The notes under the pieces: generated by a model
Told to the model about the DNA's origin: nothing
What the model saw: the letters and a program-made list of their open reading frames with translations, nothing else
Databases searched by the model: none
From: Cliona cf. orientalis
Lineage: Eukaryota; Porifera; Demospongiae; Clionaida; Clionaidae
Reading direction: 5' to 3'
Assembly (NCBI GenBank): GCA_963930775.1
Contig: OZ005703.1
Location: forward strand, 4,526,001-4,590,000
Length of the DNA stretch: 64,000 bases
In this document: positions 23,786 to 32,024 of the stretch, piece after piece
Position numbering within the stretch: position 1 is the first letter of the stretch
Layout: each line of letters opens with the position of its first letter
Program-made: the position numbers and the translations under genes

Positions 23786-25330
23786 CTAGTCTGTGCCTCC
23801 ATATGTTGAACCAATATCAATTGTCACAGTACTGTAAGTAGGTCCTATCAATGATTGCTTTTGAACTTTAACTGATGTGCCCACTTCAGTAGCACCTTCA
23901 CTCTTTGCATAAAATTTCCAACAACTACAGTTGTAGTGCCTGTAGAGTGGGGTTAATCTAATCTTTATCTTGTGGCACAGTTTAAGAAGTGTTAGCAAGT
24001 GTTGCTTTCCATCACCATGAAAATATTTCCTTGATAGAAGATGGCTGAGGATGGAGAGGTGTGCAAGCAGAAGAGTGTCCAGGATGTTCACATAGTTTTG
24101 TTTATATGGTCTGGCAACTGCAATCAAAACAGTGACTGCCAACAAAACGAATAGTTCATAAGACCAGTAAGATATGCCAATTTTCTCAATTGACAGAACA
24201 TTGTACAAGCATAATAAACCTCTCAAAAAGAAGTAGAGACCAGAAAAACTCCTCATGTCTCTGCCACCATCTAGACCATTCCTATAACATCCGTGGAATT
24301 TATCCACAAATGTGGTTAGAGCTAATCTGTCCAATTTGCACTTAGAAAGGCATGCTCTAAAAGCCTTAATGGGATAAAGAACCAACAGCAAGGCTGGCAG
24401 GAAATCACATACTATCAAAAATAGTGCAACTATTATGACTCTGAGAGATTTAGTGTACTGATATATATTTTCACAACTTATGCTTTGATCGTAGTCCATA
24501 AATTATTAACAGTTTCTTGTACATTCTTTGTACGGTTAAGTGTATTATATTGGTGAGCAAGAAAACAGCTGTGCTGACTGATACAGTACCTTGGTGTAAG
24601 AAAGAAGGAAAAAGGCTGCAAAAGCACTGATGGTATTATTTGTAATATCCCATTCTCTTCGTAGTCCAACAAGACATCTGTGAAATATTTTCCATATCCA
24701 CACTAGGGGTCTGAAGTTGCAATCATGTAATTCAATGAAGATCCAAGTCAGAAGGATCAGACAGAGAGGATAGATGGCTAAAATATAGCCTAAGAACATA
24801 ATGTGAATCAGTTCAAGATCTCTACTGACACAAAATGGTGGTACTAAATAACGGAAAAATCTAGATTCCATGTGCCGTAGAAGAAAAGAGCGAGATAAAA
24901 AAGAGAGTGGGATTCATCTTCAAGTATTAGTGTATCTACTCTATCAACTAGTAGTGTGCAACTGACTATCTGACTGTACATGATGAAGCAGGTCATGGGA
25001 GCACAGATTAAACAAATTCGAAAAGTGAGAATTGCAAGGTAGAATAGTGTGATTGGCACAAACTCCAGGAACAAGTAAAATGGCACCCCATACCAGGCAT
25101 GTAACAGTTTGAGCATTGATATCCAACTGAGGTCACCGAAGGTCCAAAGTGATCAATACACTCTTTACATAGTAAACCTTTTCTATTCATTGGTCCACAC
25201 ATGTAGTCATTGAGCTCTGAGATGCAATCTGGAAGTTTGATGTAGCTATAATCTGTCACATTGTGTCCCTTGACCTGAAAGTATGGGCACAGTCCAATGA
25301 ACACACCCTCACCTTCCTCAAGTCATGCAG
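23786..25330 (-). pseudogene. Frameshifted copy of the cysteine-motif multi-pass membrane protein
   Basis: Collinear with the intact gene at 39451-41211: CGPMNRKGLLCKEC, AWYGVPFYL, APMTCFIMYSQ, LPALLLVLYPI, FHGCYRNGLDGGRDMRSF are all recognisable. Frame breaks occur near 25315 (two bases missing in the CMT-EEGEG segment), near 25110 (after CSNC), near 24860 (between WNLDF and FFRY) and around 24500-24545 (two shifts). The last 237 residues are open to a stop at 23786. The signal-peptide region is not recognisable. At least four lesions make it a decayed duplicate, not an intron-bearing gene: none of the breaks has convincing splice sites. Confidence 0.75.
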
Positions 25331-27445: not shown

Positions 27446-28050
27446 TTAGTGTAAAATAGAGTTTTATACCTAGAGTAGCTAACTCATGGGACGATTTTAC
27501 ACCAGCAAAACCTAGAGTAACTCATGGGACGATTTTACACCAATACAACCTAGAGTAACTCATGGGACGATTTTACACCAGCAAAATTGGTGTAAAATCC
27601 TGAGTATTTATTGTATGCCAAGCATATTATTAAGGGAGGATTTTACACCACATCAAAATTAAGGGGCTTACTCATGTAAATTCTCCCATATAACTTACCT
27701 CTGCTATATATAAGGGACAATTTTACACCAGTTGCCACCACAGTTACTGAAGTGGTGTAAAATCGTGCCATGTACTACTGATGGCTAACAGTAACTGGAG
27801 CAGATTTACATGTGACCTTTGACCTCACTTAAAATTCTCCCATAATAATAAGAATGCATACCCATACTCTGCTAAAACTTTAAGTGTGAACTTTGACCTG
27901 GTGTAAAATGCTCCCTTGTATATAGCCACTGATCCAGACTCAGGTAGGTTTTTAAGTGCGTTCCGAATCCTCGCTTGCTGTCCATGGGTGTGGCTGAAGT
28001 GCACATACTTGGTGGGTGGGGCTATCTTGCAGCTGTGACAGCTACTTTGG
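27446..28050 (+). repeat. Left long inverted arm
   Basis: Contains repeated GGACGATTTTACACCA motifs in both orientations, the first three in roughly 38 bp tandem units (27476-27590). It matches the right arm inverted, with small differences. A minus-strand frame here (27825-28082) is also present in the right arm and is not judged a gene. Confidence 0.8.
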
Positions 28051-28209
28051 TCTCCTCTACCTATACAATACCAGAATTTCAAATGAAAATACTCTCATGG
28101 TCTCCAGAGCAAACTCTACTTTAAATCTTAAAATCAGACTGGCGTTGTGGAATAGCTCAATCCCTTCGTAGCGAATACTGCACTATGTCCTATTAATTTT
28201 CATAGTTAT

Positions 28210-28604
28210 TACGTCCAGAGTCCCAATTAGAAAAACGCTTCGGCCGACCGATGAGGTAATTGTGATGTAAAATATGACGAAAATGCGGTTAAGACTGTTT
28301 CAAAATGTTTAGCACGCATGAAAGCTTGTTGGGGCCCAGAATTCGAACCTAGCGTAGAAGAGATAGTGGACTATCGATGAGATATGGCGATTCTCCCAGT
28401 TCGCTTTCTTTGGCGAGCACGCACTCGGGGGGATTTCCCTATTCAGTCTAGGCACATGGCAAGTGGAGGTCACGTCCGGGTCAACCGGCTCAAGCCGCGC
28501 GCCTCAATATACTCGCATACGGAGCATGCGCAATCTGTCGACGTGTCCTGGTTCGCGGGTAGAGTAGCGCGATGTAGTACTTTTCATGAGGGACTCTGGA
28601 CGTA
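28210..28604. repeat. Array unit 1
   Basis: 395 bp. Ends TACGTCCAGAGTCCC and GGGACTCTGGACGTA, a perfect inverted pair. CpG-rich. Almost identical to unit 6. Confidence 0.85.
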
Positions 28605-28621
28605 GTCTCCAAGTTGTTCAT

Positions 28622-29059
28622 TACATCCCGAGTCCCAATTCACAAATCGAAATTCGGCCGCTCGATGAGGTAATTATGACGAAACCTATGATGAAACCTA
28701 TGATGAAATGATGATGAAATGATGATGAAATTGGGGTGAAGACTGCTTCAAAATGTTTAGCGCGCATGACAGGGTGTTGGGACCCAGAATTCGAACCTAG
28801 CGTACAAGAGATCGTGGACTATCGATGACATATGGCGATTCTATCAGTTCGCTTTCTTTGGCGAGCGAGCTCTCTGGGGGGATTTCCCTATACAGTCTAG
28901 TACATGGCAGTGGAGGTCACGTTCGGGTCAACCGGCTCAACCCGCGCGCCCCAGTATACTGCGTGTACTGAGCATGCGCAGTTGGTCGATGTGTCCAAGT
29001 TCGAATTATGGCAGCGTACAGTAAGCGCGGTGCAATACTTATGAGGGACTTGGGATGTA
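28622..29059. repeat. Array unit 2
   Basis: 438 bp. Ends TACATCCCGAGTCCC and GGGACTTGGGATGTA (one mismatch). Includes a short ATGATGAAA tandem tract. Separated from units 1 and 3 by 17 bp of the type GTCTCYAAGTTGTTCAT. Confidence 0.85.
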
Positions 29060-29076
29060 GTCTCTAAGTTGTTCAT

Positions 29077-29523
29077 TACATCCCGAGTCCCAATTCGCAA
29101 AAAAGAATTCGGCCGCGCGATGAGTAATTATGACGAAACCTATGATGAAACCTATGATGAAATTATTGAAACCTATGATGAAATTATGATGAAATTGGGG
29201 TGAAGACTGCTTCAAAATGTTTAGCGCGCATGACAGGGTGTTGGGACCCAGAATTCGAACCTAGCGTACAAGAGATCGTGGACTATCGATGACATATGGC
29301 GATTCTCTCAGTTCGCTTTCTTTGGCGAGCGAGCTCTCTGGGGGGATTTCCCTATACAGTCTAGCACATGGCAGTGGAGGTCACGTTCGGGTCAACCGGC
29401 TCAACCCGCGCGCCCCGATATACTGCCTGTACGGAGCATGCGCAGTTTGTCGATGTGTCCAAGTTCGAATTATGGCGGCGTACAGTAAGCGCGGTGCAAT
29501 ACTTATGAGGGACTCGGGATGTA
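29077..29523. repeat. Array unit 3
   Basis: 447 bp. Ends TACATCCCGAGTCCC and GGGACTCGGGATGTA, perfect inverted pair of the second sequence type. Close relative of unit 2. Confidence 0.85.
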
Positions 29524-29540
29524 GTCTCTAAGTTGTTCAT

Positions 29541-29917
29541 TACGTCCAGAGTCCCAATTAGAAAAAACTATTCGGCCGACCGATGAGGTAATTGTGATGT
29601 AAAATATGACGAAAATGCGGTTAAGACTGTTTCAAAATGTTTAGCACGCATGAAAGCTTGTTGGGGCCCAGAATTCGAGCCTAGCGTAGAAGAGATCGTG
29701 GACTATCCGATGATATCCTTATGGCGTTTCTCTCAGTTCGCTTTCTCTAGCGAGCTTGCTTTCAGGGCAGGGGGGTTTCCCTATTCAGTTGAGCACGTGG
29801 CAGGTGAAGGTCAACCGGCTCAAGCCGCGCGCCCCAATATTGTACGCGTATACGGAGCATGCGCATGTGTCCTAGTTCGAATTTATGGCGGCGTCTTCAT
29901 GAGGGACTCTGGACGTA
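29541..29917. repeat. Array unit 4
   Basis: 377 bp. Ends TACGTCCAGAGTCCC and GGGACTCTGGACGTA, perfect inverted pair of the first type. Confidence 0.85.
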
Positions 29918-29941
29918 GTCTCTAGGTTTTTCATTACTTGT

Positions 29942-30321
29942 TACGTCCAGAGTCCCAATTAGAAAAAAAGAATTCGGCTCTCGCTATGATGAAATGATGA
30001 TGAAACCTATGATGTAATTGCTGTGAAACTGTTTCAAAATGTTTAGCGCGCATGAAAGGTTGTTGGGACCCAGAATTCGAACCTAGCGTAGAAGAGATCG
30101 TGGACTATCCCTTATGGCGTTTCTCTCAGTTCGCTTTCTCTAGCGAGCTCGCTTTCAGGGCAGGGGGATTTCCCTATTCAGTCGAGCACATGGCAGGTGA
30201 AGGTCCGAACCGGCTCAAGCCGCGCGCCCCGATATTGTACGCGTATACGGAGCATGCGCAGTTTGTCAATATGTCCTAGTTCGAATTTATGGCGGCGTAT
30301 TCATGAGGGACTCTGGACGTA
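29942..30321. repeat. Array unit 5
   Basis: 380 bp. Ends TACGTCCAGAGTCCC and GGGACTCTGGACGTA, perfect. Closest to unit 4. Confidence 0.85.
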
Positions 30322-30339
30322 GTCTCGAAGTTTTTCATT

Positions 30340-30809
30340 ACTTGCCCAGTAGAAATTTACTTTTCTGCGGTTATTAGGTAATGATGACGTAATCTATGAG
30401 GTAATTGCCAGAAAACTCAGGGCCTCCGTGGAGCCTTTCTGAGACTTGAAAATCGGTATGTATGTAGAGTATCTGACGCATGTATCCAGCGAATACATTA
30501 TAAGCTGAGCGCTACTTTCTCTGCGAAGTACCGCCGGCCGAACTTCACGCGTTCTCTTGGCTGACGTATTAAATCCCGTGGATAAAAAAAGATAGCCTTG
30601 TGCTATATATAGCACGCACGCTGTGTGCCATGCCGCGACTAACCTGATGTTCAGAAGCTGTCGACTTCGTCTCCTGTGATTGAAAATTGTCAGTGTCGAG
30701 GTCGAGAGTCGGCCGCGGTCGACTCTCAGACTCCGTCTCTGCGCCAGTATCGATGTGTGTACGCACTATATTGACGACCTTTTACCATATGAACCATTAC
30801 TGGGCAAGT
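30340..30809. repeat. Element B copy 1
   Basis: 470 bp with ends ACTTGCCCAGTA and TACTGGGCAAGT. Contains the empty site (ATCCCGTG at 30573-30580) of the insertion found in copy 2. Confidence 0.8.
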
Positions 30810-30838
30810 GGTCAAGTTTTTTTCATTAAAGTAATACG

Positions 30839-31232
30839 TACGTCCAGAGTCCCAATTAGAAAAACGCTTCGGCCGACCGATGAGGTAATTGTGATGTAAA
30901 ATATGACGAAAATGCGGTTAAGACTGTTTCAAAATGTTTAGCACGCATGAAAGCTTGTTGGGGCCCAGAATTCGAACCTAGCGTAGAAGAGATAGTGGAC
31001 TATCGATGAGATATGGCGATTCTCCCAGTTCGCTTTCTTTGGCGAGCCCGCACTCGGGGGGATTTCCCTATTCAGTCTAGGCACATGGCAAGTGGAGGTC
31101 ACGTCCGGGTCAACCGGCTCAAGCCGCGCGCCTCACATACGGAGCATGCGCAGTCTGTCGACTTGTCCTGGTTCGAATTATGGCGGGTACTGTAGCGCGA
31201 TGTGGTACTTTTCATGAGGGACTCTGGACGTA
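30839..31232. repeat. Array unit 6
   Basis: 394 bp. Ends TACGTCCAGAGTCCC and GGGACTCTGGACGTA, perfect. Lies between the two B copies and nearly duplicates unit 1. Confidence 0.85.
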
Positions 31233-31254
31233 TATAGTCTCCAAGTTGTTCATT

Positions 31255-31831
31255 ACTTGCCCAGTAGCAATTTACTTTTCTGCGATTATTAGGTAATGAT
31301 GACGTAATCTATGAGGTAATTACCAGAAAACTCAGGGCCTCCGTGGAGCCTTTCTGAGACTTGAAAATCGGTATATATGTAGAGTATCTGACGCATGTAC
31401 CCAGCAAATACATTATAAGCTGAGCGCTACTTTCTCTGCGAAGTACCGCCGGCCGAACTTCACGCGTTCTCTTGGCTGACGTAATCCCGTGTAGCCTCGT
31501 CCCCAGGCGCCAGGCCACTCCCACGTTTTCAATGTTGCTGCGTGCAACATTGAAAACGTGGGAGTGGCCTGGGGACGAGGCTAATCCCGTGGATAAATAA
31601 AGCTAGCCTTGTGCTATATATAGCACGCACGCTGTGTGTGCGCGTGCCATGCCGCGACTAACCTGATGTTCAGAAGCTGTCGAGTTCGTCTCAGAAAATT
31701 GTCAGTATCGAGGTCGAGAGTCGGCCGCGGTCGACCATCTCTGTGATTGAGGCGCCAGTACCAATGTGTGTACGCACTACATTGTCGACCTTTTACCATA
31801 TGAACATCATGCATGCAGCTGCTGGGCAAGT
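31255..31831. repeat. Element B copy 2
   Basis: 577 bp, starting ACTTGCCCAGTAG and ending GCTGGGCAAGT. Collinear with copy 1 but carrying a 92 bp insertion. Confidence 0.8.
31492..31583. mobile_element. 92 bp hAT-like mini-element with 8 bp target duplication
   Basis: Near-perfect hairpin with ends TAGCCTCGTCCCCAGG and complement. The 8 bp ATCCCGTG is present on both sides (31484-31491 and 31584-31591), and once only in the paralogous copy at 30573-30580. Eight-base duplications are typical of hAT transposition. Confidence 0.9.
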
Positions 31832-32024
31832 GGTCAAGTGTTCATATTAATATCATTTTTAGGCATACACTAATATAGAACTAGCATAATAATTGCTAAT
31901 TTGTATGTCTACTGTATGCATTTTTCATCAACAGAAATTAGAAAAATGTTACTACTAGGTGGGGCTCACCATGTGCATGAGTTAAACTTCTTTAAATTGT
32001 AAGGGTATCTCTGCTTCTCGCTTG

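What the first reader, a model, noticed from the sequence alone, without database searches (positions are those of the whole stretch)
28210..31232. Array units whose two ends vary between units but stay matched within each unit
Units 1, 4, 5 and 6 end ACGTCCAGAGTCCC / GGGACTCTGGACGT. Unit 3 ends ACATCCCGAGTCCC / GGGACTCGGGATGT, and unit 2 is the same with one mismatch. Two positions change at both ends together. Neighbouring ends of adjacent units often do not match (1/2 and 3/4), so the match is a property of the unit. This suggests selection on a paired structure, end-to-end gene conversion, or two families that each transposed as intact units.
Basis: seen in the sequence. Interest (0 to 1): 0.82.

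Follow-up and report, generated by a model that had tools for sequence, protein, structure and literature searches.

The report
Tandem jumping-gene units with matched ends
The array is a row of short non-coding relatives of rolling-circle jumping genes (Helitrons), and hundreds of copies show that the two ends of each copy stay matched while the sequence between them is shuffled, which suggests that the two ends must act together for the element to move.

Summary
The window lies in an unnamed 217 Mb eukaryotic genome with 1358 + 1354 exact copies of the end motif. Genome-wide, 742 of 752 exact-ended units of 372-432 nt have matched ends and 10 have one end of each type; about 204 would be expected if the ends were independent. 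In 122 sampled units the bodies are mosaics of both types. Linkage falls along the unit (median r2 0.35 under 20 bp, 0.16 at 300-360 bp), yet the two ends, about 390 nt apart, keep r2 0.77-1.0. On a body tree both ends switched together in 6 of 6 supported contrasts. The units are non-autonomous Helitron2-like rolling-circle elements: asymmetric terminal inverted repeats, an 18-nt 3' tail that travels with its unit, no target duplication beyond chance, head-to-tail joints at T|T. A 19.5-kb stretch around a Helitron Rep match has the same type of left and right ends. The kind is known, and compensatory changes in such ends were reported for one pair (Bao and Jurka 2013). New here are the scale and the separation of end matching from body descent. 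Whether strand pairing, co-recognition or end-to-end conversion causes it stays open.

The parts
28210..28621 (+). Unit 1, A unit with T-type ends (TACGTCCAGAGTCCC ... GGGACTCTGGACGT + tail AGTCTCCAAGTTGTTCAT)
28622..29076 (+). Unit 2, A unit with G-type ends; one G.T mismatch between the ends (right end GGGACTTGGGATGT)
29077..29540 (+). Unit 3, A unit with G-type ends (ACATCCCGAGTCCC / GGGACTCGGGATGT) + 18-nt tail
29541..29934 (+). Unit 4, A unit with T-type ends + tail AGTCTCTAGGTTTTTCAT
29935..29941 (+). 7-nt filler TACTTGT; its first 6 nt equal the start of the 5' end of the ACTTGCCC type of B unit
   Evidence: inference
29942..30338 (+). Unit 5, A unit with T-type ends + tail
30339..30826 (+). 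B unit 1: ends ACTTGCCCAGT at both sides, tail GGTCAAGTTTTTTTCAT
30839..31253 (+). Unit 6, A unit with T-type ends; body 99% identical to unit 1 over 323 compared columns
31254..31845 (+). B unit 2: left end ACTTGCCCAGT, right end GCTGGGCAAGT (one T.G mismatch), tail GGTCAAGTGTTCAT; split by a palindromic MITE
   Evidence: read by eye
28211..28224 (+). 5' asymmetric terminal inverted repeat (ATIR) of unit 1, 1 nt from the 5' terminus
28590..28603 (+). 3' ATIR of unit 1, 18 nt from the 3' terminus

Best explanation
The array is a head-to-tail stack of non-autonomous Helitron2-type rolling-circle transposons. Each unit starts with T + a 14-nt 5' ATIR and ends with a 3' ATIR followed by an 18-nt tail ending TTCAT (14-17 nt in B units). 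SHOWN: the tail travels with the unit upstream of it; near-identical units sit beside unrelated neighbours, joined at TTCAT|TAC; the G-type left end, with part of the A-unit 5' body, stands ahead of Helitron Rep-helicase genes at C6 and C17, and the C17 one also has a G-type right end with tail 19.5 kb away. SHOWN: bodies recombine between the T and G types while the ends stay matched and switch together. INFERRED: transposition needs a matching pair of ends, because the two ATIRs pair on the transferred strand (the end-of-replication signal proposed for Helitron2) or because one Rep protein must read both. Units with unlike ends therefore rarely spread, or are made alike by conversion limited to the ATIRs. 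INFERRED: arrays grow because the insertion target looks like TNAT|T and the unit's own 3' end is TCAT, so the border of an existing unit is itself a good target.
For: Helitron identity: 150 scored Helitron_like_N (PF14214) matches in the genome, some of them fragments of one copy, with single frames up to 2466 aa. At C6 an A-type 5' end leads into a coding region with Rep, PIF1 helicase and OTU domains. At C17 a left end at 5866217 (TACATCCCGAGTCCC) and a right end finishing at 5885686 (GGGACTCGGGATGTAGTCGAAGTTGTTCAT) bracket the Rep match C17:5869561 and are followed seamlessly by an A unit and, after a 5-nt filler, a B unit. Tail linkage: tail variants track the upstream body (0 of 500 shuffles) and not the downstream one (74 of 500). 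Unit mobility: A copies up to 1.4% apart precede B units 17-28% apart. Target: T at -1 and -2 in 38 of 38 counted left borders, A at -3 in 30, T at -5 in 30; +1 after TTCAT is T in 17, A in 10, G in 1 of 28 right borders. No target duplication beyond chance. Matched ends: 742 of 752; B units 29 of 31 matched over 11 nt in four types, the other two with one mismatch each. Ends decoupled from bodies: haplotypes; linkage; with identical rows and the L018 duplicate removed, 5' site 6 to 3' site 390 r2 1.0, while site 378 to site 390, 12 nt apart, r2 0.52; 6 of 6 supported contrasts, p 0.031; 24 body-marker pairs show no such coupling.
Against: Ten of 752 exact-ended units are discordant, and in the 80 nt listed three of the eight T..G ones (C3, C10, C16) share a similar distinctive 5' body, so a discordant lineage may have moved. 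The linkage fall is not monotonic (median r2 0.23 at 240-300 bp). On a tree built without the near-end markers the ends agree in about 4 of 5 and 3.6 of 4 supported contrasts (never opposite), too few to reach 0.05. No 5' hairpin was predicted in the T-type A end, the 3' hairpin of the G type is not in the T-type fold, and no terminal fold beat shuffles (z -0.90 to +1.45 for ten stretches, one of which, L074, missed the first 7 nt of the end), although Helitron2 is described with hairpins at both ends. The pairing test was mixed: position 3 favoured G.T over A.C (58:7, or 50:5 without double discordants) but position 2 did not (18:13). No empty site was examined. Like types are somewhat clustered along arrays. 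The 14-18-nt distance from 3' ATIR to terminus is shorter than the 20-30 bp published. The middle of the C17 element (5868201-5873799) was not fetched, and the C6 copy shows no right end in the 8 kb fetched.
Confidence: 0.75

Rival explanations
1. Plain subfamily descent: two master elements with different ends each multiplied, and the match is inherited, with no continuing mechanism.
For: T and G units form largely separate groups (between-type body distance median 0.134 against 0.093 within T and 0.087 within G), and end labels are strongly clustered on the tree (7 changes against 30.4 in shuffles).
Against: Bodies are mosaics and end type switched at least 6 times with both ends moving together; linkage between ends exceeds linkage to body sites 12 nt away; B units show further matched end types.
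Confidence: 0.15
2. End-limited conversion: during transposition the two ATIRs anneal and mismatches are repaired, so one end is rewritten to match the other, independent of selection for function.
For: G-ended units with T-like bodies up to site 378, 5 nt short of the G-type 3' ATIR and 12 nt from its variable site 390, and T-ended units with G-like letters at sites 18 and 20, 5-7 nt inside the 5' ATIR; r2 profile.
Against: Selection plus double exchange gives the same pattern; discordant units persist; no direct conversion event was caught.
Confidence: 0.3
3. Cut-and-paste MITE array (TIR transposon with a TA or TTA duplication) later amplified as a satellite by unequal crossing-over.
For: Perfect 14-nt inverted repeats, T/A-rich borders, head-to-tail arrays; like types are somewhat clustered along arrays (neighbour odds ratio 6.7, p 0.002).
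Against: The 18-nt tail travels with the unit; near-identical units lie beside unrelated B units; no duplication beyond chance at 19 loci; the same left end stands ahead of Helitron Rep-helicase genes.
Confidence: 0.04
4. The match reflects an RNA or cruciform structure used by the host.
For: The ATIRs pair in the predicted fold of either strand of unit 4.
Against: Whole-unit folds are not clearly better than shuffles (z -1.26 and -0.51); in window 27800-32000 no Rfam family reached its gathering score and no tRNA was found.
Confidence: 0.03

Closest known systems
Helitron2 group (Bao and Jurka 2013, PMC3627910; passages read)
   Same: Rep-helicase partner, ATIRs of 8-15 bp with the 5' copy 0-2 bp from the terminus and the 3' copy subterminal, 5' T; compensatory changes reported there for one pair of elements (Helitron-1N1_CQu and -1N2_CQu); the proposal that ATIR pairing ends rolling-circle replication
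   Different: 3' ATIR 14-18 nt from the terminus (published about 20-30); 5' hairpin not found in the T type; here hundreds of copies with recombining bodies and mixed-type arrays
Helentrons and HINE/DINE-1 (Thomas et al. 2014, PMC4067079; passages read)
   Same: Non-autonomous elements with 12-15 bp subterminal inverted repeats, TT insertion preference, OTU protease genes in partners
   Different: No AP endonuclease domain found in the two C6 Rep-helicase frames; 3' repeat 14-18 nt from the end rather than the 38-60 nt given for the mite families
FoHeli1 and FoHeli2 of Fusarium oxysporum (PMC5148889; passages read)
   Same: ATIRs and insertion between TNAT and T, the target shape found here
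   Different: Fungal; ATIR sequences given there differ; only one near-tandem case is described in the passages seen
Cg_HINE elements of the Pacific oyster (PMC7492417; abstract and outline seen)
   Same: Helentron-class non-autonomous elements associated with tandem repeats
   Different: There the tandem repeats are central repeats of one element; here whole elements are stacked

Membership tests
Helitron2 (HLE2) | Autonomous partner with Rep and PIF1-like helicase in one element | tested here: met
   Helitron_like_N, PIF1 and OTU on two neighbouring frames of L068 behind an A-type left end; C17 stretch with G-type left and right ends bracketing a Rep match with a 2466-aa frame. The middle of the C17 stretch was not fetched, so its helicase was not seen.
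Helitron2 (HLE2) | 8-15 bp ATIRs, 5' copy 0-2 bp from the 5' terminus | tested here: met
   14 nt in A units and 11 nt compared in B units, 1 nt from the terminus
Helitron2 (HLE2) | 3' ATIR subterminal, about 20-30 bp from the 3' terminus | tested here: inconclusive
   Subterminal, but 18 nt in A units and 14-17 nt in B units; A tail shown to travel with its unit
Helitron2 (HLE2) | 5' hairpin that uses the 5' ATIR | tested here: inconclusive
   Not in the predicted fold of T-type A (window 29541) or of one B end (L032), partly in G-type A (window 29077) and B unit 1 (window 30339); none stands out from shuffles. Figures of the source paper were not seen.
Helitron2 (HLE2) | 3' terminal hairpin | tested here: inconclusive
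   GGGACT/AGTCTC in G-type A and ACCAC/GTGGT in B (L032) are in the predicted folds, z -0.74 and -0.90; it is not in the predicted fold of T-type A
Helitron2 (HLE2) | Insertion at T|T without target duplication | tested here: inconclusive
   T before the element in 38 of 38 counted left borders (a few are nested or duplicated), T after it in 17 of 28 right borders; no duplication beyond chance at 19 loci; no empty site examined
Helitron2 (HLE2) | Rep-helicase falls in the Helitron2 clade | not tested
   No reference proteins were compared
Helentron | AP endonuclease fused to Rep-helicase | tested here: not met
   No endonuclease family among Pfam matches (E up to 0.001) of the two L068 frames; other copies not examined
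Cut-and-paste MITE | TIRs at both termini and a fixed-length target duplication | tested here: not met
   The right repeat lies 18 nt inside the terminus; 19 loci with both outer borders show no duplication beyond shuffled flanks

The most novel reading that the evidence does not exclude
The two ATIRs of a Helitron2 unit anneal on the transferred strand during transposition, and the 14-bp heteroduplex is repaired, so one end rewrites the other. Ends evolve in concert inside each copy while the 360-nt body between them recombines freely, and the preference for G.T over A.C mismatches at position 3 would mark the sense strand as the one that folds.
Probability: 0.28. Interest if true: 0.75.

Novelty: new member of a known kind. 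Interest (0 to 1): 0.52.

Why it matters
How Helitron2 elements recognise where to stop, and whether their 5' and 3' inverted repeats act as a pair, rests in the passages read here on a proposal and one compensatory pair. This genome holds hundreds of short copies in at least six end types, with shuffled bodies and a Helitron-bearing stretch with the same type of ends, so the requirement for matching ends can be measured statistically and tested with existing hybrid units. It also suggests why such elements stack into arrays: their own 3' end (TCAT) resembles their target (TNAT).

Tried and rejected
Right end for the C6 Helitron: none found in 8 kb downstream. A tRNA-derived SINE was considered because the reverse strand of the A body holds a B-box-like GGTTCGAATTC (recalled motif): ARAGORN found no tRNA, and Rfam (E up to 0.1, window 27800-32000) matched only the palindromic MITE at 31492-31583, below the gathering score. 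Terminal hairpins: not better than shuffles. Composite A+B transposition as the main mode: only weakly supported (21 neighbour pairs, Mantel r 0.16, 40 of 1000 permutations reach it), since near-identical A units precede unrelated B units. General wobble tolerance: position 3 strongly asymmetric, position 2 not; body mutations are roughly strand-symmetric (C>T 30, G>A 41; in CpG 15 and 17; 89 of 122 units used), so the position-3 bias is real as a count but may reflect a few spread lineages. Literature: six searches, one of which (38) assumed a sponge host; host identity was not established.

Sample limits: the 122 complete units come from 28 regions covering the 100 places listed first, all on contig C1, from loci most similar to a T-type query, from L067 and from the window; the T:G ratio in that sample is not a genome estimate. 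L001-L008, L037, L040, L045 and L051 were left out as overlapping other loci. Seven intermediate units were left out of the T/G tree contrasts. L010, a solo unit with C before its left end, is not among the 38 borders, and a few of those 38 (L043 at 2305, the second ones of L035 and L062, one of two identical L027 flanks) are nested or repeated. L058 was dropped from the right borders as odd, leaving 28 of 29. The B count misses window B unit 2, whose right end has one mismatch.

Full report
OBSERVATION. The window is C15:4526001-4590000 of an unnamed 217 Mb eukaryotic assembly, with 1358 forward and 1354 reverse exact matches of GGGACTCKGGAYGT. In what follows 'T type' is ACGTCCAGAGTCCC and 'G type' is ACATCCCGAGTCCC at the 5' end with its complement at the 3' end.

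MATCHING IS GENOME-WIDE. Patterns requiring two exact 14-nt ends, AAT after the left end and a total of 372-432 nt gave T..T 625, G..G 117, T..G 8 and G..T 2: 10 of 752 discordant against about 204 expected from the margins. Units of other lengths or with other end letters are not in these counts. Copies are related, so the Fisher p (1e-124) is not a real probability. In 122 complete units from the fetched loci there were 80 T/T, 35 G/G (two with a further one-base mismatch) and 7 with an intermediate end; none is fully T/G. Neighbours are less alike: 18 of 63 adjacent oriented A pairs are of unlike type, 4 further pairs with intermediate ends left out, although like types do cluster somewhat (odds ratio 6.7, p 0.002). 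B units carry four other matched types (ACATCCCCAGT 17, ATCTCCCCAGT 9, ATATCCCCAGT 2, ACTTGCCCAGT 1), with 2 of 31 differing at one position.

MATCHING IS NOT SIMPLE DESCENT. A marker table shows T-ended units with G-like body blocks and the reverse. Across 122 units, r2 between sites with minor allele at least 0.2 falls from a median of 0.35 under 20 bp to 0.16 at 300-360 bp (not monotonically: 0.27, 0.23, 0.22, 0.16 and 0.23 in between), but end-to-end pairs, 384-392 bp apart, have 0.77-1.0. With identical rows and the duplicated locus L018 removed (119 rows), 5' site 6 and 3' site 390 have r2 1.0, while body site 378, 12 nt from site 390, has 0.52 with it, and body sites 18 and 378 have 0.42 with each other. 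On a maximum-likelihood tree of bodies without the ends, each end needs 7 changes, 6 of them forced by well supported branches; in 6 of 6 independent supported contrasts both ends change together (p 0.031). On a tree that also leaves out near-end markers, ends agree in about 4 of 5 and 3.6 of 4 supported contrasts and never go opposite ways (not significant by itself), whereas 24 pairs of body markers near the two ends agree in at most half of their 3-4 contrasts. The tree assumes no recombination, which the mosaics violate, so these counts are approximate.

WHAT THE UNITS ARE. Several lines identify rolling-circle elements of the Helitron2 kind. First, the repeating unit is asymmetric: after the right repeat come 18 nt, AGTCTCYAAGTTGTTCAT, and the variants of that tail follow the upstream body (0 of 500 shuffles) and not the downstream body (74 of 500). 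Second, most units join as TTCAT|TAC without extra bases (19-nt spacing between repeats), and A units up to 1.4% apart stand before B units that differ by 17-28%. Third, left borders read T-N-A-T before the element's own T (T at -2 in 38, A at -3 in 30, T at -5 in 30 of 38) and right borders begin with T in 17 of 28; this resembles TNAT|T reported for FoHeli1 and FoHeli2 (PMC5148889, passages), and the unit's own last four bases are TCAT. In 19 loci with both outer borders no flank duplication exceeds chance. Fourth, the genome has 150 scored matches to Helitron_like_N. At C6 an A-type left end runs into a gene with Rep, PIF1 and OTU domains, split over two frames in that copy. At C17 a G-type left end at 5866217 and a G-type right end with tail finishing at 5885686 bracket a Rep match with a 2466-aa frame, 19,470 bp in all, followed directly by an A unit and then a B unit; the stretch 5868201-5873799 was not fetched. 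On C1 a B-type left end appears, by eye, to lead into another such coding region, with a Rep match downstream.

HOW IT MAY WORK. Bao and Jurka (PMC3627910, passages) proposed that pairing of 5' and 3' ATIRs marks the end of rolling-circle replication, and noted compensatory changes in one pair of elements. The present data fit a requirement for matching ends. Three sub-hypotheses remain: strand pairing, recognition of both ends by one Rep, and conversion limited to the ATIRs. I tried to separate them by mismatch chemistry. At position 3, units with 5' G and 3' T (a G.T pair on the sense strand) number 58 and units with 5' A and 3' C number 7, or 50 and 5 without double discordants. At position 2, the classes are 18 (T.G) and 13 (C.A). 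Body mutations are roughly symmetric between strands. The first count favours pairing, the second is neutral, and shared ancestry inflates both; I call this suggestive only. In the sample, mismatched end cells of A and B units are 13 G.T or T.G against 2 others (my tally; three of the 13 are in A units of L018, a duplicate of L016); window B unit 2 adds one more T.G.

ARRAYS. In the fetched loci G-type units tend to lie left, T-type next and B last (adjacent G-to-T 13, T-to-G 5, p 0.10; B follows a T unit 29 times and a G unit once). The sample was partly chosen by similarity to a T unit, so this order needs an unbiased check. I infer that new copies insert at the TNAT|T border of existing copies.

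NOVELTY. The kind is known, so this is a new member with unusually informative copy numbers. Membership in Helitron2 is supported by the partner gene and the ATIR geometry, but hairpins, target sites and Rep-helicase phylogeny are inconclusive or untested. I make no claim that the linkage pattern is unpublished beyond the searches named in Tried and rejected.

Noticed in passing
window 31492-31583: Perfect palindromic insert (29-bp arms; TAGCCTCGTCCCC ends) in B unit 2 with an 8-bp duplication ATCCCGTG by eye, like an hAT-type MITE; Rfam reports it as MIR6426, below the gathering score.
   Followed up: partly
window 29935-29941 and joints in L030, L054, L058, L066, L067, L076: Some joints hold 3-8 extra bases such as TACTTGT, TACAT, TACGT or TATTACAT that look like the first few bases of a unit's 5' end, as if an insertion had started and restarted.
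   Followed up: no
arrays in L030, L038, L043, L054, L064: Unit order along arrays tends to be G-type, then T-type, then B last, which might record insertion order.
   Followed up: partly
L026 about 1850-2550: A GC-rich element with inverted ends (CACCTATCAAT...GCCCCACTACCCC) is nested in the B unit.
   Followed up: no
G000 contig C1, about 15-37 Mb: More than half of the 150 listed Helitron Rep matches fall on the distal part of the 37 Mb contig C1, by my reading of the list.
   Followed up: no
window 23786-25304, minus strand: Neighbouring open frames look, by eye, like exons of a cysteine-rich membrane protein.
   Followed up: no
C3:6722495, C10:1631183, C16:3621371: Three discordant T..G units share a similar first 80 nt, a possible small lineage that spread despite unlike ends.
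   Followed up: partly
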